From positions 186,001 to 250,000 of the forward strand of contig NZ_AZUK01000001.1 of assembly GCF_000527035.1 (NCBI RefSeq): 64,000 nt of DNA, given 5' to 3'. Position numbers and translations under genes: made by a program. Positions 33,238 to 47,433 of the stretch are shown one piece after another. Positions within the stretch are counted from its first letter, which is position 1. Every line of letters begins with the position of its first letter. Origin of the DNA: Tolumonas lignilytica. GTDB taxonomy: Bacteria > Pseudomonadota > Gammaproteobacteria > Enterobacterales > Aeromonadaceae. Below the pieces are notes generated by a model. The model saw nothing but the letters and a program-made list of their open reading frames with translations, made no database searches and was not told the DNA's origin.

Positions 33238-34428
33238 TTAAATAACAGCAGCAATACCATCGATCAAGGCATCAATGTTGTTTTTAGTCATACCCGCAAC
33301 ACTGATACGACCAGAACCCACGATATAAATCGCAAATTCATTTTTCAGACGGGCAACCTGCTCTTTATTCAGCCCGGAGAACGAAAACATGCCGTTTTGC
33401 TGAGTGATAAAACTGAAGTCTTGTTGGATCCCTTTTGCCTTCAATTTTTGCACGAACAATTCCCGCATCTCCCAGATACGGTCGCGCATCATCTTCACTT
33501 CCTCAATCCATTCGGCACGCAAGGTTGTATCTTTCAGAACAGTGGCAACAACGGCGGCACCGTGTGATGGAGGATTGGAATAATTCGCCCGAATCGTTGT
33601 TTTTACTTGGCTGAATGAACGCAGGGCAACTTCACTGTCAGTAGTCACCACAGTGATAGCACCTACACGCTCATTATATAAACCAAAGTTTTTAGAGAAC
33701 GAGCTGGCAACCAAAAGTTCTTTATTATATTTAGCGAACGTACGCAGCCCTGCCGCGTCCTCTTCGACGCCACGGCCAAATCCTTGATAAGCAAAATCAA
33801 AGAAAGGAAGCAACTGACGGTCGGCACAGAATTTTGCTAATACTTCCCATTGCTCTAATGACGGATCAACGCCGGTCGGGTTATGGCAGCAACCGTGCAA
33901 CAGCACCACGTCACCAGCCACTGCCGCAGACAGCGATTCCAACATGCCGTTGAAATCCAGAGCTTTACTTTCTGGAGAATAATAACGGTATTCGGCAGTT
34001 TCCATACCAGCAACACCGAATACCTGGAAGTGGTTTACCCAGGTTGGATTAGAGATCCAAACCTTTTTAGAAACGCCCTGACGGAAAAGGAATTCAGCGC
34101 CAATACGCAATGCACCAGTCCCGCCCGGTGCTTGTGCCGTTTTCGCTCGTTTACTGGTGACGATTTCGTGATCAGCACCGAACAGCAGCGCCTGTACTAA
34201 CTGACCATATTCCGCATTACCTTCAATGCTCAGATAGTTTTTGGTGGTCTCTGTTTCCAGCAGAATTTTTTCTGCCTTTTTTACACAATTGAGGATGGGT
34301 GTGGCGCCAGCTTCATCTTTATAAATGCCGACACCCAGATTGATTTTGTTACTGCGCGGGTCATTACGGAATTCTTCGGTTAAGCCCAGAATAGGGTCTG
34401 CCGGAGCCTGAGTCACCTTCTCAAACAT
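33238..34428 (-). CDS. aspC: Aspartate aminotransferase
   Basis: A 396-aa class I PLP aminotransferase (oxaloacetate + glutamate to aspartate + 2-oxoglutarate). The N-terminus [20 protein letters not shown], the [10 protein letters not shown] loop, [10 protein letters not shown] and [16 protein letters not shown] with the PLP lysine fit AspC. TyrB is very similar, so tyrosine/phenylalanine transamination is also possible. A GGTAT-GTT-ATACC dyad (34486-34498) lies in the promoter region. Confidence 0.92.
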
Positions 34429-34534
34429 GTTTCGTCCTGTTTTGTTTGGCTAGTTGGGGGATAGGCAATCATTCGCCTAGATTTGGGTATGTTATACCAC
34501 CCGAAAAAGAGAGCGACCACCGCTTATTATCAAT

Positions 34535-35449
34535 CTATGCTACATGAAGCCAGTTTTTTGCATATACCATCACTTGCTGGGGGAGCTTTTGCTGATTTTC
34601 AATTAGAAACTGCAAACTGATTTGTTGTTTACGCGACAACACAGCCAGTGGCCATTTCTCTTCTGTCATCAAAGGGTGCCCTAGCAACCGCAAATAATCT
34701 GGCCAATTTGCTGGTAAATACAATGACAATGGACGTTGTAACCGCGCTGCAAATTCTGCCGCCTGCAAAATACCATCGGGTGACAAATCACCTAAATGGC
34801 TCCATGGCATATCATGCATCAGAGCAAGCATAAATTGTTCTGCCAGATAAGTCGCTTTTATTGGCGCATGAATAAGTAACGAGTTTGGTGGCAAAGAGAG
34901 ACTGACAAAAGTGTCTCGATTATCAACGGTAATAATGTGGTGCGGTTGACCATCTTTCCACAATATTTTTTTGATATCAGGAATCACACGCTCTGGAATG
35001 GCCACCTCTCCCCAGGCTCGTAATAACGCACTGATATCCAGAAGCTCGCCTGAGCGCATAAAGATACTGCACGGTAAATCACTGCGTAGCAGCAGGTAGC
35101 TGTCACGCTGCAATTTGATGTCGTGTTCGTGAATTTGTTCTTCCGAAATCACCCGTTCCTGATTTAACAAGCATGACATGATCCGGCTGTTACAATGTTC
35201 TGGTAACTGAATATCCAGTTGCTGAAGTATCAATTCAAGTGACGGAAGAGAATGAGCCATAAGTTGCTGACGGAATGTTTGCTCTCCTGTCTTAGTCAGT
35301 TGATATACACCCTCTCCCTGAGCCGTCACCCAGCCGTGTTGCAGCCAGATATTTAACTGAATAATAGCCCAACGTCTGCGTACTCTGACTTGCCGCTTAG
35401 TCAGCAAACGCTCAACCAGCGCAGCAGATGCAGTGTTGAGATCCGTCAT
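34535..35449 (-). CDS. Putative JetD/MksG-like Toprim-domain protein downstream of mukB
   Basis: A 304-aa protein with no classical enteric counterpart at this position. The N-terminal third (about 12-62) looks like a winged helix (VRRRWAIIQLNIWLQHGW...YQLTKTGEQTF). The C-terminal half resembles the DUF2220/JetD_C Toprim domain: VDNRDTFVSL at about 175-184 where the family has VEN..., and HLGDLSPDGILQAAEF at about 218-233 where it has (Y)WGDLDPDG. The catalytic Glu would therefore be Asp176 and the second Asp of DxD would be Ser223, suggesting altered or lost nuclease chemistry. It follows mukB by 54 bases across a terminator-like hairpin. Homology is inferred by eye; a false match is possible. 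Confidence 0.6.
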   Translation of the reverse strand: MTDLNTASAALVERLLTKRQVRVRRRWAIIQLNIWLQHGWVTAQGEGVYQLTKTGEQTFRQQLMAHSLPSLELILQQLDIQLPEHCNSRIMSCLLNQERVISEEQIHEHDIKLQRDSYLLLRSDLPCSIFMRSGELLDISALLRAWGEVAIPERVIPDIKKILWKDGQPHHIITVDNRDTFVSLSLPPNSLLIHAPIKATYLAEQFMLALMHDMPWSHLGDLSPDGILQAAEFAARLQRPLSLYLPANWPDYLRLLGHPLMTEEKWPLAVLSRKQQISLQFLIENQQKLPQQVMVYAKNWLHVA

Positions 35450-35475
35450 ATCTCTTCGCTTCCTGTATCCAAAAG

Positions 35476-35497
35476 AAAGGCAGCTTATGCTGCCTTT
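35476..35497 (-). terminator. Terminator/attenuator hairpin between mukB and the Toprim-like gene
   Basis: AAAGGCAGC / GCTGCCTTT with a four-base loop, running into CTTTT on the minus strand. It lies between the mukB stop (35504) and the next gene start (35449). The downstream gene therefore depends on read-through or a promoter in 3' mukB. Confidence 0.7.
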
Positions 35498-35503
35498 TTT
35501 AGA

Positions 35504-38500
35504 TTATGCCGCTTCAGTATTACCACCAAAGCCACGCAGACCGACCACATGAACATGTTCCTGCTTGCCATGCACCTTGCGGATGAGTTTGTAGGTCGTC
35601 CCTTTTTCCGGGCTGATGTTTTCCGGTGCAGCGATCAGTAACTGCATATCCTGTCGCTCACACAATTCAAACAGGGTCGCAATTGACTTGGCATCCAAAC
35701 GGGCTGCTTCATCAAGGAACAGCAAACGACACGGTTCCAGATCACTGCTGCGCAGACGACGGTTTTCATCTTCCCAGCTTTGCAGCACCATCAGCAGAAT
35801 AGCTTGACCCGTACCGATCGCTTCACCAGTCGATAAAGCACCGCTTTCTGCCCGCAACCAACCATCCACACCACGCAACACCTCAATTTCCAGCTCAAGG
35901 TAATTACGATAATCCAGCAAGGCTTCACCTAATACCTGGAAGCTGCGATCACCCTGATCGATGTGAGGATTCAAGCGTTGGAATAGTTTGGCCATGGCCT
36001 CAGAGAATGTCAGTTCATTGCTGGCAAACAGATCTTGGTGTTGCTGAGCATGTTCACCCAATGTTTGCAGCAAACGGGCATATGCCTCCCGCACATTAAC
36101 ATTCAGACGCACACCGCGGACCTGACCAAAAGTAATATTCTGCAGGCCCTGATTCATGACGCGAATACGATTCTGTTCACGACGGATGATATTCGTAATT
36201 TTTGCCGCCACCTCATGTGATGACAGAGACAGATGCGTTTCACGTTGCTTCAGTTCATCTGCCAGACGAGCCAGTTCAATTTCCATCTCTTCAATCGCAT
36301 CAATCGGATCATCAGAACGAATGATGTCGTGTCGGATACGATCTTTAAGGTAACGATAAACCTGAATATAGAACTGAACTTTTTGTTCTGTCTGACGATT
36401 TCCTTCGGACAAGCGTAAACTGTCGCGTAATGCCTCATCACCCGCTACCGCGAGTCGTAAAGCCCCCAGCGACTTGTCTGACATGGAGCGCAATTCATCC
36501 GCATCCAGATATGCCAATTCACGGCGATTCAACTGCTTCTCAACACTGTTCGTCCGAGCCAGGGTTAACACGCGACTCCAACTCTTTTTATGCTCCAGCA
36601 ACAAATGTCGAGCGGCGCGATATTCTTTATTTTCAGCATTAAAGCGTTGATTTAAGCTATCTATATCACGACGGCAAATCTGGTATTGCGTTTCAGCTTG
36701 AGTCCGACGGCTACGGGTTCGCACCAACTGATCTTCCAGATCACGCTTTTTACCTCTCGCCTGATCTTCCATATCTGCGGCAACTTGTAGCCCCATCTGC
36801 TGTAATTCTCGCTCAAACTCCTGCAGAGTCTGAGTCTTGGCTTGCAGGCTGGAATGTAATGCCGTTTGTACCTGTATGGCATCCTGATACCGTTGTACGA
36901 TTTGTTTCAGCTGTTCCGTCAGTTGGCGACGAAGCTGCTCGGCATCCGCCAGTTTTTGCTTTAGTCGTTCACTAATTTCTGATGTCTGATCTAACAAACT
37001 TTCTGCATCGTGATAGGCAAAATATGCCCGACGGGCAAACAGTTCATCCAGTGCAAACGCTTGGCGGCGAACATCAGTAAGCTGTTGTTCCGCAACAAAA
37101 CCTGCTTGCTGTAATTCATCGTATGCCGCCGGATCTTCCCGTAAGGCATCTAACATTGATTCCAGTTGGCGACATGCTTTTTCGTGTTTATCAAGAAATA
37201 ACTGAGCTTCATGACAGGCTGCAAACTCCGCTTCTGCTTGTGACAAGCGTTCGTTTAATGTCATATCAAACAGCAGGTTGAACTGCGATTGCAGACGCAC
37301 AACCAGCTGTTGCTGTTGTTGCAATGCCGTCATCCGTTGACGATATTGATGTTCATTTTGCTGCTGTTGTTGCAGATTATTTTCAGCCTGACGGATTTCA
37401 GATTGCAGAGCTGTCAGAGCCGCTTCGGGATCATCTTCAAACGCCACATGCAGATGCTCTGTCATGAACTGACTCAAGTGATGATACAACCGGTTCTGCT
37501 TCTGCTGTTCAAACGCAGTTTTGGCATATGTCTCAACAATTTCATCACGTTGGGCGGATAACAGTTCGATACGTTGCTCGCGTGCCGCCCGACCAAAAAC
37601 CGGAATTTCCGGATAACGTGAATAACGCACTTCACGCTGACTAGCACGAACTAAGACTGCCTTATCGAATTCTGTGGCTTCATGCAGATTTTCGTCGAAG
37701 GAGTCCGGATTCCCTTGAATCAGATAAATATCATCAGGTAAATCACTCAACGTATTAAGATGCTTGATGGCACCGTCCAGATCCATCACGACAATCGCAC
37801 TGCGTGCCGGCCCGAACAACGCAGAATAATAAGGGGCATCATCAAGAGAGATATCGTCATAGACATCTGTCAGTAATACGCCGCCTAATTGCTCGCTGAT
37901 ACGAACTAATTGAGGATCTTCATTACCTGCAAACTGCTGCAGATTACGCAGCTGTTTTTCCAGAGCGTCTTTCTGTTGTTGCAGCTGCTGTTTTTCCTGC
38001 TCAAGACGTCGCTCTTCCGTCAGTGTTTTTTGCAGCAACTGACTGATAGCCACTGGAGACTCCAATGTCTCGCCTGTCATTTCCTGCAATTTATCGAGTT
38101 TTTCGTGTGCAACTAACCATGCAGGCGCTTTCTTACGCAAGGCTTCAATTTGCTGTCGGGTTGCATCCACCTGATGCAACACCCGAATGCGATCTTGCTG
38201 ATCACGCTCAAGCCGTTGCTGCAGATCATCCTGTTGAACCACCAGCTCTTCCGCTAGCAGATTTAACTGTTCATTATCTGTTAAATCGTACTTATTGCCC
38301 TGCTGTTCAAGTTGCCGCAACAGTTGTTCCTGAATGCCAACTAACGCATTTTGTTGCTCTAAATCACGGCGAATATCTTGTAAGGCGCGTTCAACCTGAG
38401 CCCGTCGAGCAAGTGCGGCCCGATAATTTCTGGCCTGTTCAATAATCTCTTGAGCCTTTTCCCAGGCTTGTTCCCGAGCAATCGGGCCGGCAATTTGTTG

Positions 38501-39946
38501 TAAAGCCGCATAGGCTTTTTCATACTGATCGGCAGCCGCTTTAGCCAAACGAAGACGTTGCTGTAACGACAAAACCTGATCTGTCGCTTGTTGTTCCTGC
38601 TCACGCAGTGTTTGCTGGAAATTGACGACGTTATCCGGTGTTAAGTCAGGTAACTCGCACAGCTTTTGGGCCTGCTCCAAGGCATTGACCGCTTGTCGGA
38701 ACTGAATGGCTCGTGTTTGTTGCACATCCAGTGCCTGCTGATAGTCTGCCAACTGGCTTTTCAGGCTGTCAGCCTCTTCTTCACTTTGCGTTTTTCGCAA
38801 TTCCAGTTCTGACTTTTCTTCTGCCAATTCGGTGGTAATTGCTGATTGCTCTTCCGCTTTTAACGTCAGTTCTTCAACATCTTCACGATACTGGATGATC
38901 TTGTTGGTTAAGCCGGTGGCAGCCATCACTTTGGCCAAGTGTTCAGATGCCAGTTCCAGATCTTCGGTAAGATGCTTTTCTCGCGCGGTCATCTGTTCGG
39001 CTTCTTCCGCCAGATAAATCGCGCGCTGTTTTTCCTCTTTGATCAGACGTTGCTTATCCTGCAACTGCTTACGACCATGTAAAGCCAGCTCTGACAGACG
39101 ATTTTTTTCACTCTGATTGCGCACAAAATCAGCGGCAACATAATTTGTAGTTTCGGTGATCAGATGACGAAATAAATCACGCTGTGATTGGGTTTCTTTA
39201 ATGGCATCTAGCGTCCGGCGATTTTCATGAATAGCCGCTTCCATATCCTGGAAGGCTTTGCGCACCCCGGAGTTCTCAGGCAGTAAATATTCACGTAATG
39301 AACGGCTAATCGAAGATGAGATACCGCCATACAATGATGCTTCGATCAGGCGATAGAATCTGGAGCGATCACGTTGATCACGGAGCTTTTTGGCTGTCAC
39401 TCCGTATTCAAACATGATGTTATGATAATCGGTCACCGAATTGAACTTAACAAATCGAATCGCCCCTAATTCAGCGGCCTGCTTCCGCAATTCATTGAAG
39501 GGCCGGACTTTGGCTTTATCATCATCCAGTTTTTCTAGCAGAAACTCCGTTGGCAGCAGATTTTCCGGAACATCCAGCATACAGAAAGGCGTAATATTGA
39601 CCTTGTTATCACGATTCGCCACCTGCTCAAGATGCACCCCAAACCATAACCGTTGCCCTTTGGAATTGCGGACATCAATCATGGAATAGCAGTGACCACG
39701 CTGTAATTTGCCATACAGACCGCGATCACGACTGGCAGATGAACTTCCGGCTTCGGTGGTATTACGGAAATGCAATAATGTCTGATCAGGGATCAGTGCC
39801 GTAATCAACGCAGCCATACTGGTTGACTTACCTGCGCCATTACCACCCGATAGTGTCGTCACCATCTGATCCAACTCGAAGGTACGGGCAAAAAAACCGT
39901 TCCAGTTAATCATGGTGAAAGAGAGAAATTTACCACGCGTGATCAT
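35504..39946 (-). CDS. mukB: Chromosome partition SMC-like protein MukB
   Basis: A 1480-aa SMC-family ATPase, the usual MukB size (E. coli 1486). Walker A is GGNGAGKST (34-42). Two long Gln/Glu-rich coiled-coil arms (about 240-660 and 790-1120) flank a central hinge (about 665-785). The C-terminal head has the signature LSTGEAIGTGQAILL and Walker B CRLLFLDEAARLDAKS. It condenses and segregates DNA with MukE and MukF. Its ATG overlaps the mukE stop by four bases. Confidence 0.98.
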   Translation of the reverse strand: MITRGKFLSFTMINWNGFFARTFELDQMVTTLSGGNGAGKSTSMAALITALIPDQTLLHFRNTTEAGSSSASRDRGLYGKLQRGHCYSMIDVRNSKGQRLWFGVHLEQVANRDNKVNITPFCMLDVPENLLPTEFLLEKLDDDKAKVRPFNELRKQAAELGAIRFVKFNSVTDYHNIMFEYGVTAKKLRDQRDRSRFYRLIEASLYGGISSSISRSLREYLLPENSGVRKAFQDMEAAIHENRRTLDAIKETQSQRDLFRHLITETTNYVAADFVRNQSEKNRLSELALHGRKQLQDKQRLIKEEKQRAIYLAEEAEQMTAREKHLTEDLELASEHLAKVMAATGLTNKIIQYREDVEELTLKAEEQSAITTELAEEKSELELRKTQSEEEADSLKSQLADYQQALDVQQTRAIQFRQAVNALEQAQKLCELPDLTPDNVVNFQQTLREQEQQATDQVLSLQQRLRLAKAAADQYEKAYAALQQIAGPIAREQAWEKAQEIIEQARNYRAALARRAQVERALQDIRRDLEQQNALVGIQEQLLRQLEQQGNKYDLTDNEQLNLLAEELVVQQDDLQQRLERDQQDRIRVLHQVDATRQQIEALRKKAPAWLVAHEKLDKLQEMTGETLESPVAISQLLQKTLTEERRLEQEKQQLQQQKDALEKQLRNLQQFAGNEDPQLVRISEQLGGVLLTDVYDDISLDDAPYYSALFGPARSAIVVMDLDGAIKHLNTLSDLPDDIYLIQGNPDSFDENLHEATEFDKAVLVRASQREVRYSRYPEIPVFGRAAREQRIELLSAQRDEIVETYAKTAFEQQKQNRLYHHLSQFMTEHLHVAFEDDPEAALTALQSEIRQAENNLQQQQQNEHQYRQRMTALQQQQQLVVRLQSQFNLLFDMTLNERLSQAEAEFAACHEAQLFLDKHEKACRQLESMLDALREDPAAYDELQQAGFVAEQQLTDVRRQAFALDELFARRAYFAYHDAESLLDQTSEISERLKQKLADAEQLRRQLTEQLKQIVQRYQDAIQVQTALHSSLQAKTQTLQEFERELQQMGLQVAADMEDQARGKKRDLEDQLVRTRSRRTQAETQYQICRRDIDSLNQRFNAENKEYRAARHLLLEHKKSWSRVLTLARTNSVEKQLNRRELAYLDADELRSMSDKSLGALRLAVAGDEALRDSLRLSEGNRQTEQKVQFYIQVYRYLKDRIRHDIIRSDDPIDAIEEMEIELARLADELKQRETHLSLSSHEVAAKITNIIRREQNRIRVMNQGLQNITFGQVRGVRLNVNVREAYARLLQTLGEHAQQHQDLFASNELTFSEAMAKLFQRLNPHIDQGDRSFQVLGEALLDYRNYLELEIEVLRGVDGWLRAESGALSTGEAIGTGQAILLMVLQSWEDENRRLRSSDLEPCRLLFLDEAARLDAKSIATLFELCERQDMQLLIAAPENISPEKGTTYKLIRKVHGKQEHVHVVGLRGFGGNTEAA

Positions 39947-40665
39947 ATATCCAGCCCCAGTTGCTCTTCGTCTTCTTCTGCTTCATCCAGTGAATCCCAT
40001 ACGGTTTCACGGGTTGGTAATTCATCGTCATGCAAAATTGCTTCGCCTTCACGGATCATGCGTAGCTGTACAGCACGAGGATCTTCATCGGTACGCACAT
40101 CAGCAGCAAAACGAAACACAGCTTCATTGACCCGAAATTTGTCGCCAACGCCCAATGCCGTCACCATGCCCAAACGACGTAAACGACGCATGGATGTGCG
40201 AATGCGTTCCTGCAGTTTCTTCTTATCTAAATCCGTACCACCACTACGTTGATTCACCATCCGCAATAACTGACGTTCATCCGATAAAGAAACGATTTCC
40301 TCCTGCAGATCCTGCAGGGAAAAAACACCTTCATTTGCCAACCGTTCAGGGCTCAAATAGAGATAACACAAGACTTTACCGACCAGCATATCCAATTCAG
40401 ACAGAACAGAAGTGCCAATCTCTGAAGTTGACCGTGGGCGCAGATAGAAAAAACCTTCCGGCGCTTTAATGAGTTCAACCTGGTAACGACTATAAAAACT
40501 TTCCAGTTCATCATGGTAATCAAGCAGATAGGAGTGACTATCCAGATCATCTGCACTAATGTGTTTACCACTGCGTAATGCTGTATCCAATTTTGGAAAC
40601 AAAGGGTTAGCAATCGCCTGCGCCAAACGCAAAGCAATAGGAAGTTCAGTATTGATCAATGACAT
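39943..40665 (-). CDS. mukE: Chromosome partition protein MukE
   Basis: A 240-aa KITE-type winged-helix subunit bridging MukF and MukB. Conserved blocks: RLAQAIANPLFPKLDTALRSGKHI, VELIKAPEGFFYLRPRSTSE and LCYLYLSPERLANEG. The start MSLINTELP overlaps the mukF end by 20 bases with an AAGG site inside mukF; a longer reading 20 codons upstream is not family-like. Confidence 0.96.
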   Translation of the reverse strand: MSLINTELPIALRLAQAIANPLFPKLDTALRSGKHISADDLDSHSYLLDYHDELESFYSRYQVELIKAPEGFFYLRPRSTSEIGTSVLSELDMLVGKVLCYLYLSPERLANEGVFSLQDLQEEIVSLSDERQLLRMVNQRSGGTDLDKKKLQERIRTSMRRLRRLGMVTALGVGDKFRVNEAVFRFAADVRTDEDPRAVQLRMIREGEAILHDDELPTRETVWDSLDEAEEDEEQLGLDI

Positions 40666-41983
40666 GTGCCTGCACCTTGGCGCCTGAATTGTTAATAGGT
40701 TTCCACTTAGGATGACGAACACCACCTAATTCGGCGGCGGAATAACCAAGCCGGATCGCTTGGTCAACCAGCATTCGGGCTACATCGAAATGCTGATATT
40801 CAGGATATTGTTGTAAGTAGTCTTTCAATATATCGGCCATATCAAGCGGTTTACCCTGCATATGGAAATCAGATAAATACACACCGATATGCTCAGATAG
40901 TTTTTCATCTAGGGCCTGAATCTCCTGGAATTCAAGAACGGTAGGCAATTCACCGGTAATTTCATCATTATGAAGCACCAGTGTTTCATCCCTTAATTCC
41001 AGCAAACGACTTTCCTGCGCAACTAGCATCAACCAGTTGTGTTTATCAAAATCACGAATGGATTCTCGCAGACGCTGACTGAAGACGCGGTTTTTATCCA
41101 TATCAATCGCATTACGGATAAATTTATGTACGTGACGGTCATAGCGGGCCCACAGTTCAATGCATTGCTGCCCCCAACTCAGGATTGCATCAATTCGCGA
41201 CTGCAAATCAAATGTTAACTGTTCGACCTGCACCGACATGATGGCTTGTGCTCTGGCTGTTTCCTGAATATTCAACAAACCAGACTGCAGTTTATGCCCG
41301 GCAGCATCCAACGTATCCTGTAATTCGCGTAACGTTTGCCCGGTTTCCCGCAACAATTTTTCGCAGTTATGAATAGCCTGAGTCCAGTTCTGATTCAAAA
41401 GATCAGCAATATCCGCTTTTACCTGATTTTGTTGATCATCCATCGCCCTTTGAGTCAGATCGATGCGACTTAAAATCTCTTCCACAGAATACTTAAGACG
41501 AGGATAGACTTCAGTATCCCAGGCTGATTCATCACTGGCCTGTACTGCCGATGCATAGGCCTTTTCCAGTTCCCCAGCGACTTGTTCCAGCAACAGCGAG
41601 AGCTTAACGCTGTTCACCTGCTGCTGATCGAGGTAAAACTCAATGATGCCAACTGCCAGTCGGGTAAGACGATAGACACTCTCACCCGCAACCGGATCGG
41701 TGTTAAACCGCGACAGCAACCGCTGCCGGACCAATTCATTCACTGCATTATTAGCTCGCACGGTTAATGTTTCGTCCATCAGACCGTACAACTGACTGAC
41801 ATAACCAAATGCATCATGTAACGCCGCTTCACTTAATTCCTGAGTATGTTCATCGCGTGCCATTGAAGATATCGCGATCAAAAACGCCAAGCGTTCATTA
41901 CCCAGATGAAGTTCTAGCTGTTCCTGTCTTACCCAGCCAACCAATTCAGGCAGGCTGCGCTCAGGCCTAAGTTGTTCGTTCAT
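40646..41983 (-). CDS. mukF: Chromosome partition kleisin MukF
   Basis: A 445-aa kleisin: N-terminal winged-helix dimerisation domain (about 1-115), helical middle region and C-terminal winged helix (about 360-445) that contacts the MukB head. Conserved segments include LPELVGWVRQEQLELHLGNERLAFLIAIS and KRDEHTQELSE-like MARDEHTQELSEAALHDAF. It begins 15 bases after cmoM, as in E. coli smtA-mukFEB. Confidence 0.97.
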   Translation of the reverse strand: MNEQLRPERSLPELVGWVRQEQLELHLGNERLAFLIAISSMARDEHTQELSEAALHDAFGYVSQLYGLMDETLTVRANNAVNELVRQRLLSRFNTDPVAGESVYRLTRLAVGIIEFYLDQQQVNSVKLSLLLEQVAGELEKAYASAVQASDESAWDTEVYPRLKYSVEEILSRIDLTQRAMDDQQNQVKADIADLLNQNWTQAIHNCEKLLRETGQTLRELQDTLDAAGHKLQSGLLNIQETARAQAIMSVQVEQLTFDLQSRIDAILSWGQQCIELWARYDRHVHKFIRNAIDMDKNRVFSQRLRESIRDFDKHNWLMLVAQESRLLELRDETLVLHNDEITGELPTVLEFQEIQALDEKLSEHIGVYLSDFHMQGKPLDMADILKDYLQQYPEYQHFDVARMLVDQAIRLGYSAAELGGVRHPKWKPINNSGAKVQAHVIDQY

Positions 41984-45705: not shown

Positions 45706-45735
45706 AAAAAGGCCTTCCGTCGGAAGGCTTTTTTA
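45706..45735. terminator. Terminator between pfkA and ybjD
   Basis: AAAAAGGCCTTCC / GGAAGGCTTTTTT with a GTC loop and one bulged G. It is flanked by A and T runs, so it works for both convergent genes; the ybjD stop lies in the T-run. Confidence 0.88.
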
Positions 45736-47355
45736 TCCCTGTTGTCTCGCCAGCTCCACTACGCGATCAAACATTTTTTTCAACAGCATCGGCACACTGT
45801 CTGCACCTCTTTGCATCGCCTCTTCAATCACGGCTAGGGCCATTCCTGGTTTAGAACGACGCGACACGGCACGTTCAATGATCTTGTTTGCAGGCAAATT
45901 GTGTTGCTCACGCAGCATTGCTTCTCTGCGATAGACATCGTCAAAGCCATGAACATATAAAAAATGTTCAATATCCCGATTCGGTAACAGGGTCAGACCA
46001 CCATCATGGCGGTGTTCGTCACTGAGTAATCGTCTGGCGCCTTGGATATAACGCACTCCCGCTTCGTCACCATCTGCCAACATATGCCAATTAATACCCA
46101 AATCGTTCGCTAGTTTAATTAACGGGCTATATCCACATTGTGCATACTCGATGATTCGAACACCCTCGCCGGGTAAATGATAACCACATAGTTGCGCCAG
46201 TTCTGACAACAACCAAAGTTCTGTTTCCCCTTCAACCAATAACCAGCAACGAGCAAATAACGACATAGGCCGGTTGATTCTCACGTGAAAGGTTATTTTT
46301 CGTAAGTCATCGGCTGAAAATCGATTTTCATCCATCAGATAACTGCGGGTAACGCCATTGCATCGAACCAAGCGACGGATTTGCCCTAACGGTAACGTCG
46401 CCAGCAAATCACCAGAATTGGTTGTCAGAATTTTTTGCCCCGGTAATTGCTGAATCAGGCCCCAGGCAATCGACATCATGGTCGGGTGTAAACGACTTTC
46501 TGGATCTTCCAGAATGTAGATTGGCCGCGATTCATTTTCTAATTCACGACCCGAATGGGCGGATAATAAGGCATGACCGATACGCGATAGCATCTGCTGC
46601 ATCGTCTCATTGTCCATATTCCGCAATAAATCATGCCAGTCAGTTAAGCCATGCAGCATGCCCGGCTGATTAATAATATCGCGCTGGCTGTGTTTAACTC
46701 GGTGCGGCACGTTGATGAAGTAACGATCCAGCAAATATTCAGCAGCCATCACCCCATCGGTAATATGCTGCTGCCTGTCGGGGGTACAGTCTTGCAAAAG
46801 GTCGCTTAAATCCTCCATGAAATTATCCGGCTCTACGCTCGAGTCAGCGACATTGCTGATTGAACGCGAATCGCGCAAACGTAAAACCGGATTCATTGAG
46901 CTTAACAAGCGGATCAATTCGTTGCAGTTGCTGTCTTGGACCCGATTCCCGCGAGCGTCCTCAAAGAAATGTTCCGTCGTGACGGTACCATCAACATGTA
47001 AACAAGCTTTGGCGATGTAATGGATACGATGAAACATATCCAGATGGTGGTGGGTCCAAACAGCAGATAAACGATTTAAACGATGAGAATGTTGGCTGAT
47101 CCCTGGCCGATGTTCACGAAAAATCAAACAAATCTGAAGCTCTTGATCTTTCTTATCATCACAGTTTATGTGGAAAAAATCATCACTGACAAATTGATAA
47201 GGTAATGCATCGTGCCCTAACAGACTCCATAAGGCACGTAACAGACTGCTCTTACCCCAAGCATTTTCACCAATCAACGCGGTCGTCTGGCCTAGTTTGA
47301 CTGATAACTTTGATATACCGCGGAATCCAGTTATGTCGACTTGTTCCAAAAACAT
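45733..47355 (-). CDS. ybjD: OLD-family ATP-dependent endonuclease-like protein YbjD
   Basis: A 540-aa protein (E. coli YbjD about 550). N-terminal SMC/RecF-like ATPase: ITGFRGISKLSV, Walker A GENAWGKSSLL (note Trp in the P-loop, as in YbjD) and IYILEDPESRLHP. The C-terminal Toprim region has WLLVEGETELWLL (catalytic Glu) and MLADGDEAG (DxD). It ends with SVPMLLKKMFDRVVELAR. The start MFLEQVDITGFRG is the family start; 23 extra codons upstream are not conserved-looking. Biological role still unclear. Confidence 0.92.
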   Translation of the reverse strand: MFLEQVDITGFRGISKLSVKLGQTTALIGENAWGKSSLLRALWSLLGHDALPYQFVSDDFFHINCDDKKDQELQICLIFREHRPGISQHSHRLNRLSAVWTHHHLDMFHRIHYIAKACLHVDGTVTTEHFFEDARGNRVQDSNCNELIRLLSSMNPVLRLRDSRSISNVADSSVEPDNFMEDLSDLLQDCTPDRQQHITDGVMAAEYLLDRYFINVPHRVKHSQRDIINQPGMLHGLTDWHDLLRNMDNETMQQMLSRIGHALLSAHSGRELENESRPIYILEDPESRLHPTMMSIAWGLIQQLPGQKILTTNSGDLLATLPLGQIRRLVRCNGVTRSYLMDENRFSADDLRKITFHVRINRPMSLFARCWLLVEGETELWLLSELAQLCGYHLPGEGVRIIEYAQCGYSPLIKLANDLGINWHMLADGDEAGVRYIQGARRLLSDEHRHDGGLTLLPNRDIEHFLYVHGFDDVYRREAMLREQHNLPANKIIERAVSRRSKPGMALAVIEEAMQRGADSVPMLLKKMFDRVVELARQQG

Positions 47356-47433
47356 AAGGCAGTACCAGCGTTTATTTTTAATAATAATCAACTGATAGCA
47401 AAGCTGCCTTCTGTTCTGCAACAAGAACCTGAA

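What the first reader, a model, noticed from the sequence alone, without database searches (positions are those of the whole stretch)
34535..40725. MukBEF operon with a fourth gene resembling the JetD/MksG Toprim subunit
MukBEF of E. coli has three subunits; the related Wadjet/MksBEFG systems add a Toprim nuclease (JetD/MksG) that cleaves plasmid DNA. Directly after mukB here is a 304-aa protein with an N-terminal winged-helix-like region and a C-terminal half carrying VDNRDTFVSL and HLGDLSPDG, which line up by eye with the VEN... and WGDLDPDG motifs of DUF2220/JetD_C. That would make this a chromosomal MukBEF with a Wadjet-like fourth component, possibly an evolutionary intermediate or a repurposed regulator.
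Basis: partly seen in the sequence, partly recalled or inferred. Interest (0 to 1): 0.85.

Follow-up and report, generated by a model that had tools for sequence, protein, structure and literature searches.

The report
Disarmed JetD-type nuclease beside MukBEF
The gene just behind the chromosome-folding genes mukFEB in this Tolumonas-like bacterium is a relative of the DNA-cutting subunit of the Wadjet anti-plasmid system that has lost most of its cutting residues, so it may be a trace of how MukBEF arose from a defence machine, or a reused accessory part of it.

Summary
In detail: window 34535-35449(-) encodes a 304-aa protein (X) directly behind mukB of a canonical mukFEB cluster. X alone hits no Pfam, PADLOC or NCBIfam model. 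But a profile built only from relatives with an intact active site finds it at E=4e-44, and seven of those nine relatives were seen to pass the PF09983 JetD_C cut-off. Tolumonas relatives are under purifying selection (dN/dS 0.06-0.12). Against a fourth MukBEF subunit: a terminator-like hairpin lies between mukB and X, aspC is the steadier neighbour, and genus g4 has mukB in 22 of 23 genomes but X in none. Best reading: a non-cleaving JetD descendant kept beside MukBEF; binding to MukBEF is inferred.

The parts
34535..35449 (-). gene X, 304 aa: degenerate JetD/MksG-family protein (winged-helix-like N-terminus, Toprim-like C-terminal half)
   Evidence: ORF; intact-only profile A9 finds it at 151.5 bits, E=3.6e-44; trees
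35255..35407 (-). about X residues 15-65, winged-helix-like region (limits approximate)
   Evidence: 28-row family profile, positions 18-68, matches 3b73 (PhiH1 repressor-like) at E=7e-4; E=0.065 with another alignment
34898..34927 (-). X residues 175-184 VDNRDTFVSL: counterpart of the Toprim VEN motif, catalytic Glu replaced by Asp
   Evidence: alignments; residue table
34772..34798 (-). X residues 218-226 HLGDLSPDG: counterpart of the Toprim GDxD motif, second Asp replaced by Ser
   Evidence: residue table
34574..34585 (-). X residues 289-292 LPQQ: counterpart of the JetD LEQE motif, both Glu lost
   Evidence: residue table
35476..35497 (-). terminator-like hairpin (9-bp stem, T-rich tail) between mukB and X; a counterpart is present in the other seven adjacent Tolumonas loci examined and in the one g5 locus
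35504..39946 (-). mukB, 1480 aa
   Evidence: NCBIfam PRK04863.1 2002 bits; PF04310 and PF16330
39943..40665 (-). mukE (ORF extends to 40725 from a GTG)
   Evidence: PF04288; NCBIfam PRK05256.1
40646..41983 (-). mukF, 445 aa
   Evidence: PF03882, PF17192, PF17193; NCBIfam PRK05260.1
41999..42766 (-). cmoM (smtA)-like methyltransferase, same order as E. coli cmoM-mukF-mukE-mukB
   Evidence: ORF; the label rests on synteny with E. coli, no family scan was run
33238..34428 (-). aspC, downstream neighbour of X and its steadiest neighbour within the family
   Evidence: E. coli has aspC 3.7 kb beyond mukB; the name rests on recall and synteny, no family scan was run

Best explanation
X is a descendant of the nuclease subunit (JetD/MksG) of a MukB-type Wadjet system, that is, of a mukF-mukE-mukB-jetD four-gene machine. 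In the Aeromonadaceae lineage it came to sit in the mukB-aspC interval, lost its cutting chemistry and is kept as a non-cleaving protein. Most likely action (inferred): the Toprim/winged-helix scaffold still binds DNA and/or the MukBEF heads at the old JetD site and modulates loading, unloading or loop extrusion, without cutting. Shown here: homology, residue loss, purifying selection among Tolumonas relatives, synteny, and existence of intact four-gene relatives. Inferred: that the residue loss abolishes cutting, physical binding to MukBEF, any regulatory effect, and that X was inherited with MukBEF rather than acquired later.
For: Homology: the intact-only profile A9 (9 rows, no Tolumonas row) finds X at 151.5 bits, E=3.6e-44. 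Of the 28 A1 members scanned, 8 reach E<=1 with JetD_C, best 3.7e-11. Over the 22-bit PF09983 cut-off: X2 proteins at 31.6 and 32 bits, a g17 protein at 34.7 and the L109 protein at 28.5, Burkholderia 38.0 and A. caviae X2 35.5. Degenerate-only profile (22 rows) against 16 canonical JetDs: score 28.3, E=0.0067, right motif register; 60 column shuffles reach at most 25.9, the reversed set 13.9, AspC 15.1 (hhalign probability only 5.7%). Degeneration: residue table. Constraint: the 16 of 36 Tolumonas pairs with unsaturated dS have dN/dS 0.058-0.124. Origin: intact four-gene clusters L109 (GTGA overlap) and L163 (TGATG overlap), both with MukB-type SMC (PF04310 at 189 and 251 bits). X and these form one group apart from the 8 canonical JetDs in the trees (100/100). 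The Tolumonas+g5+X1 clade (96/88) branches as MukB does. A second degeneration, independent by parsimony, lies behind mukB in G148/L095 (Q,D,A,E,E; 3-nt gap).
Against: X itself hits no library model. Tolumonas-only profile against JetD is not significant (E=0.073). L096, a member of A9, stays under the PF09983 cut-off (16.7 bits). AF2 model unusable. A terminator-like hairpin separates mukB and X in all 8 adjacent Tolumonas loci and the one g5 locus examined. aspC, not mukB, is the steadier neighbour. 2 of 9 own-genus genomes with X have it split from or unlinked to mukB and still keep it. Only 4 of 115 genera in the order sample have X. The PDB searches did not return JetD. All 8 pairs with the window protein are saturated in dS, so constraint on the window gene itself is inferred from relatives. 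Rooting inside the X group is unresolved (81/56).
Confidence: 0.6

Rival explanations
1. X is a JetD descendant that no longer has anything to do with MukBEF: a free-standing DNA-binding protein whose place near mukB is inherited gene order (mukB-aspC interval).
For: Terminator-like hairpin between mukB and X; X next to aspC in every fetched own-genus and g5 locus and in 18 of 19 fetched X1 loci, the 19th being cut by its contig end; X1 kept away from mukB in genus g2.
Against: X directly behind mukB in three genera; a second copy, X2, 2.4-10.3 kb downstream of mukB on the same strand in 14 of the 16 genus-g2 genomes where both lie on one contig (coordinates); the two intact four-gene relatives have MukB-type SMC.
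Confidence: 0.25
2. X is still a nuclease: Asp replaces Glu in the VEN motif and the remaining Asp is enough, so MukBEF+X can cut plasmids like Wadjet.
For: First Asp of GDxD kept in all 8 Tolumonas rows, and Glu-to-Asp keeps the charge; one X1 row, L029, keeps both Asp.
Against: Second Asp and both Glu of LEQE lost in 8 of 8 Tolumonas rows. E236A or D279A in C. glutamicum MksG drastically impairs cutting (PMC10123090, passages).
Confidence: 0.08
3. Different history (compatible with the best explanation's biochemistry): an ancestor of Aeromonadaceae and family f13 acquired a jetD from a mobile MukB-type Wadjet, and it landed behind mukB; MukBEF itself never had it.
For: X found in only 4 of 115 genera of the order sample and in 0 of 23 genomes of g4; the Burkholderia operon sits on a plasmid near WYL and SAVED genes; the operon JetDs group inside the X tree, weakly (81/56).
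Against: The X1/Tolumonas/g5 branching matches MukB; the same mukB-X order occurs in f13 (G148) and in Aeromonadaceae.
Confidence: 0.35
4. The JetD resemblance is by chance.
For: No library hit for X itself; E=0.073 for Tolumonas-only against JetD.
Against: E=3.6e-44 with the intact-only profile, and seven of its nine members were seen to pass PF09983.
Confidence: 0.02

Closest known systems
JetD / MksG (Wadjet, MksBEFG; Pfam PF09983 JetD_C)
   Same: Toprim motif register VEN...GDxD...LEQE, lies behind an SMC gene of the MukB group, winged-helix-like N-terminus (weak)
   Different: 304 aa against 381-446 in the 16 canonical JetDs used; four of five acidic catalytic positions changed in the window protein; no family-model hit on its own; the neighbour SMC is a chromosomal MukB, not a JetC
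MukBEF chromosomal condensin (E. coli)
   Same: cmoM-mukF-mukE-mukB order as in E. coli, NCBIfam equivalogs
   Different: E. coli K-12 has ldtD-mepK-gloC between mukB and aspC and no X there; PMC7617805 (passages) states that MukBEF lacks MksG/JetD
MukB-type four-gene operon: B. pyrrocinia LWK2 pBPJTT (L163) and unnamed G743 (L109)
   Same: MukF, MukE and full-length MukB followed by an X-family protein
   Different: there the JetD residues are intact (L109; L163 read by eye from the translation) and the gene overlaps the mukB stop codon; their MukB is only about 25-29% identical to the window's
Topoisomerase VI A / Spo11 Toprim
   Same: JetD Toprim resembles it (PMC10586767, passages); the L109 protein hits PF21180 under its cut-off (18.5 of 24.1 bits)
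   Different: no hit for the window protein

Membership tests
JetD/MksG family | profile match to PF09983 JetD_C | tested here: not met
   window protein: no hit at E<=1; met by family members X2, g17, L109, L163 and A. caviae X2, not by L096
JetD/MksG family | homology to JetD through a connected protein family | tested here: met
   intact-only profile A9 finds X at E=3.6e-44; seven of its nine members seen over the PF09983 cut-off
JetD/MksG family | Toprim catalytic acids (Glu of VEN, Asp-x-Asp, Glu-x-Glu) | tested here: not met
   window D,D,S,P,Q; 16 of 16 canonical JetDs E,D,D,E,E
JetD/MksG family | CAP/winged-helix plus Toprim fold | tested here: inconclusive
   AF2 with a 3-row alignment, pLDDT 39; winged-helix hint only
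Wadjet / MksBEFG system | one operon of SMC, kleisin, KITE and JetD | tested here: inconclusive
   all four genes adjacent and co-directional, but a terminator-like hairpin lies before X
Wadjet / MksBEFG system | restricts circular plasmids by cleavage | not testable with these tools
   needs experiment
MukBEF | MukB, MukE and MukF subunits with their diagnostic domains | tested here: met
MukBEF | no MksG/JetD subunit (as stated in PMC7617805) | tested here: inconclusive
   a degenerate JetD relative is next door; association unproven

The most novel reading that the evidence does not exclude
Chromosomal MukBEF descends from a MukB-type Wadjet defence machine, and Aeromonadaceae still carry its nuclease gene: disarmed as a non-cutting MukBEF subunit in Tolumonas, and present in Aeromonas both as a disarmed copy (X1) and as a second, intact copy (X2, usually near mukB), so that in Aeromonas the chromosome condensin could also restrict plasmids in trans with X2.
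Probability: 0.2. Interest if true: 0.9.

Novelty: new variant of a known kind. Interest (0 to 1): 0.7.

Why it matters
A review speculates that Wadjet gave rise to MukBEF (PMC10586767, passages), while MukBEF is described as lacking the nuclease (PMC7617805, passages). Intact MukB-type four-gene clusters, together with a degenerate relative of their nuclease beside canonical mukFEB, make that idea testable with sequences and with ordinary biochemistry. If X binds MukBEF it would be a new accessory factor of a well-studied condensin. If the intact Aeromonas X2 works with MukBEF, a housekeeping condensin would double as a plasmid restrictor.

Tried and rejected
Direct library and PDB searches with X alone, and PF09983 over the own genome: nothing. 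The idea that X2 belongs to a Jet operon: not borne out in the loci looked at, where X2 sits beside an esterase-like or a PhzF-like gene (ten neighbouring proteins scanned). The rule 'degenerate only when behind mukB': not exact, since X1 and L013 are degenerate away from mukB while X2 is intact near it. Viral contigs, two peptide patterns from A3: no relative. The phylum sample gave, besides the window genome, only weak hits (6 of 398 genomes, E 1e-7 to 2e-4). The order of G743 gave only G743 itself (1 of 57). Rows set aside: A1 used 28 of the 41 sequences gathered (window plus the 40 loci); trees used 8 of 16 canonical JetDs; the second MukB tree left out L096, L152 and L153; G018, with two partial matches, was left out of the X2 count.

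Papers: only passages found by search terms were seen in PMC7617805, PMC10586767, PMC10123090, PMC8669397 and PMC10512200; all other papers were seen only as search listings. The searches listed no paper whose title or abstract start describes a JetD-like gene beside mukB. The operon list (Data S1) of PMC7617805 could not be read, so such operons may be listed there.
Full report
What is there. The window lies in a 3.63-Mb, 9-contig genome. Relatives at 64-66% identity to X come from two records titled Tolumonas, so the genus is called Tolumonas here. On the minus strand run cmoM-mukF-mukE-mukB-X-aspC (cmoM and aspC named by synteny). E. coli K-12 has elyC, then cmoM-mukF-mukE-mukB-ldtD-mepK-gloC, then aspC. 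X thus fills the mukB-aspC interval. MukB, MukE and MukF are canonical. X alone matches nothing in Pfam, PADLOC, NCBIfam or PDB sequences, and PF09983 finds nothing in the whole genome.

Relatives. In 75 genomes of the family, X is found in 48: 9 of 11 of the own genus (the two misses are 70% and 63% complete), 37 of 37 of genus g2, 2 of 3 of g5, 0 of 23 of g4 and 0 of 1 of g3. MukB is found in 71 of 75, among them 22 of 23 of g4. In the order sample X occurs in 27 of 394 genomes, 4 of 115 genera. Among 369 genomes of the class, 4 match: the window genome, G743 (E=3.5e-46), a short piece in G462 (4e-11) and G437 (8.5e-4).

Place. X lies directly behind mukB in G000, G069, G070, G071, G072, G073 and G074. 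In G065 a transposase-like and a thioredoxin-like ORF lie between (labels by eye). In G066 X is on another contig than mukB. G063 has mukB-X-aspC; G064 has X-aspC with mukB on another contig. In g2 one copy, X1, sits by aspC (18 of 19 fetched loci; the 19th is cut by a contig end). A second match, called X2, is present in 23 of 37 g2 genomes (G018, with two partial matches, set aside); nine X2 loci were read in full. X2 and mukB share a contig in 16 of the 23, and X2 lies 2.4-10.3 kb downstream on the same strand in 14 of the 16 (exceptions G029, G036; worked out from the coordinates). In the named A. caviae record X2 lies about 7.2 kb beyond the mukB match. In family f13 all 4 genomes have X; only G148 has it behind mukB.

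JetD kinship. X2, g17 and operon proteins pass the PF09983 cut-off; L096 does not (16.7 of 22 bits). A profile from nine intact members alone finds the window X at E=3.6e-44. The direct comparison is weak: Tolumonas-only against JetD E=0.073, with an AspC control at 0.63; all degenerate rows against JetD E=0.0067, probability 5.7%, score 28.3 against at most 25.9 in 60 column shuffles.

Active site. Five acidic positions are E,D,D,E,E in 16 of 16 canonical JetDs, 7 of 7 X2 rows, 3 g17 rows, L096 and L109. The 8 Tolumonas rows are D,D,S,P,Q. The g5 rows are S,D,H,P,E and T,D,H,E,E. The 11 X1 rows vary but all have D for the first E. L095, directly behind mukB in G148, is Q,D,A,E,E (all). In C. 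glutamicum MksG, E236 and D279 are needed for cutting, and E349/E351 are proposed nucleophiles (PMC10123090, passages). That these are the same columns is inferred from the motifs, since that protein was not aligned here. Hence X is probably non-cleaving. Its Tolumonas relatives are not decaying: dN/dS is 0.058-0.124 in the 16 of 36 pairs with unsaturated dS (all 8 pairs with the window are saturated), against 0.013-0.065 for aspC in 28 pairs.

Four-gene relatives. G743 (L109), a single-contig genome of the same GTDB class, has MukF-MukE-MukB (1472 aa, PF04310 189 bits) and an intact X whose inferred GTG start overlaps the mukB stop. Burkholderia pyrrocinia LWK2 plasmid pBPJTT (L163) has a MukF-type protein, MukE, MukB (1473 aa, 251 bits) and a DUF2220 protein starting in the mukB stop, near WYL, SAVED and ThiF genes. 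G358 (L096) has a MukB-like C-terminal piece before an intact X relative; its cluster looks truncated. All X-family rows, these included, are split from the eight sampled canonical JetDs at 100/100. The MukBs of L109 and L163 group together (99) and fall with canonical MukB rather than the JetCs, with long branches and an open fork.

Transcription. Between mukB and X a hairpin with a T-rich tail is present in all 8 adjacent Tolumonas loci examined (7 genomes, plus L001, which appears to be the same contig as in G069) and in the one g5 locus. There is none in L095 (3-nt gap if its TTG start is used) or L109 (overlap). The scan finds three terminator-like sites in 34300-35800 against 1.3 expected, and no sigma-70-like site against 2.0 expected. 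So X may be read by leakage past the hairpin or from a promoter of another kind.

Reading. A JetD descendant of MukB type, disarmed at least twice by parsimony (ancestor of Tolumonas/g5/X1, and L095), kept beside MukBEF. Whether it binds MukBEF, and whether it came down with MukBEF or was acquired, is open. Literature: MukBEF lacks MksG/JetD (PMC7617805, passages); Wadjet may have given rise to MukBEF (PMC10586767, passages).

Changes made on checking: several counts and call numbers were narrowed, and the statement that most mukB-bearing relatives lack X was replaced by the g4 count, because mukB was not counted in the order sample.

Noticed in passing
L146-L149 (genomes G172, G140, G157, G186): An SMC operon with a JetD-like fourth gene (DUF3584 and DUF7281 by Pfam in L146, the only one scanned) lies beside genes that look like elyC-tpiA-pfkA (by eye), the place where mukFEB lies in the window; these four genomes gave no MukB match. 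It looks like a Wadjet-like operon in the mukFEB slot.
   Followed up: partly
genus g2 loci L036, L038, L042-L044, L049-L051, L061; A. caviae L164: X2: a JetD-like protein with an intact active site (7 of 7 rows) and no jetABC-type neighbour recognised, usually 2-10 kb downstream of mukB.
   Followed up: partly
L035 and L041, upstream of X1: The two genes before X1 look like maoP (DUF413) and hdfR; names recalled by eye from the translations, no family search run.
   Followed up: no
G036:C1:2163813-2164739 and G066:C5:4555-4809: Extra copies of the 3' end of mukB within a few kilobases downstream of the full gene, as if the mukB end were an insertion spot.
   Followed up: no
45733-47424(-): 563-aa DUF2813 ATPase with an OLD-like Toprim domain next to the pfkA-like gene; GajA-like in PADLOC.
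   Followed up: no
L163 350-4781: SAVED, WYL and nucleotidyltransferase genes, with ThiF beside them, upstream of the Burkholderia MukFEB-JetD operon, like a defence island.
   Followed up: no
NZ_AP026896.1: A 4.9-Mb Aeromonas caviae record filed as a plasmid carries mukB and two X-family genes and is probably a chromosome.
   Followed up: no
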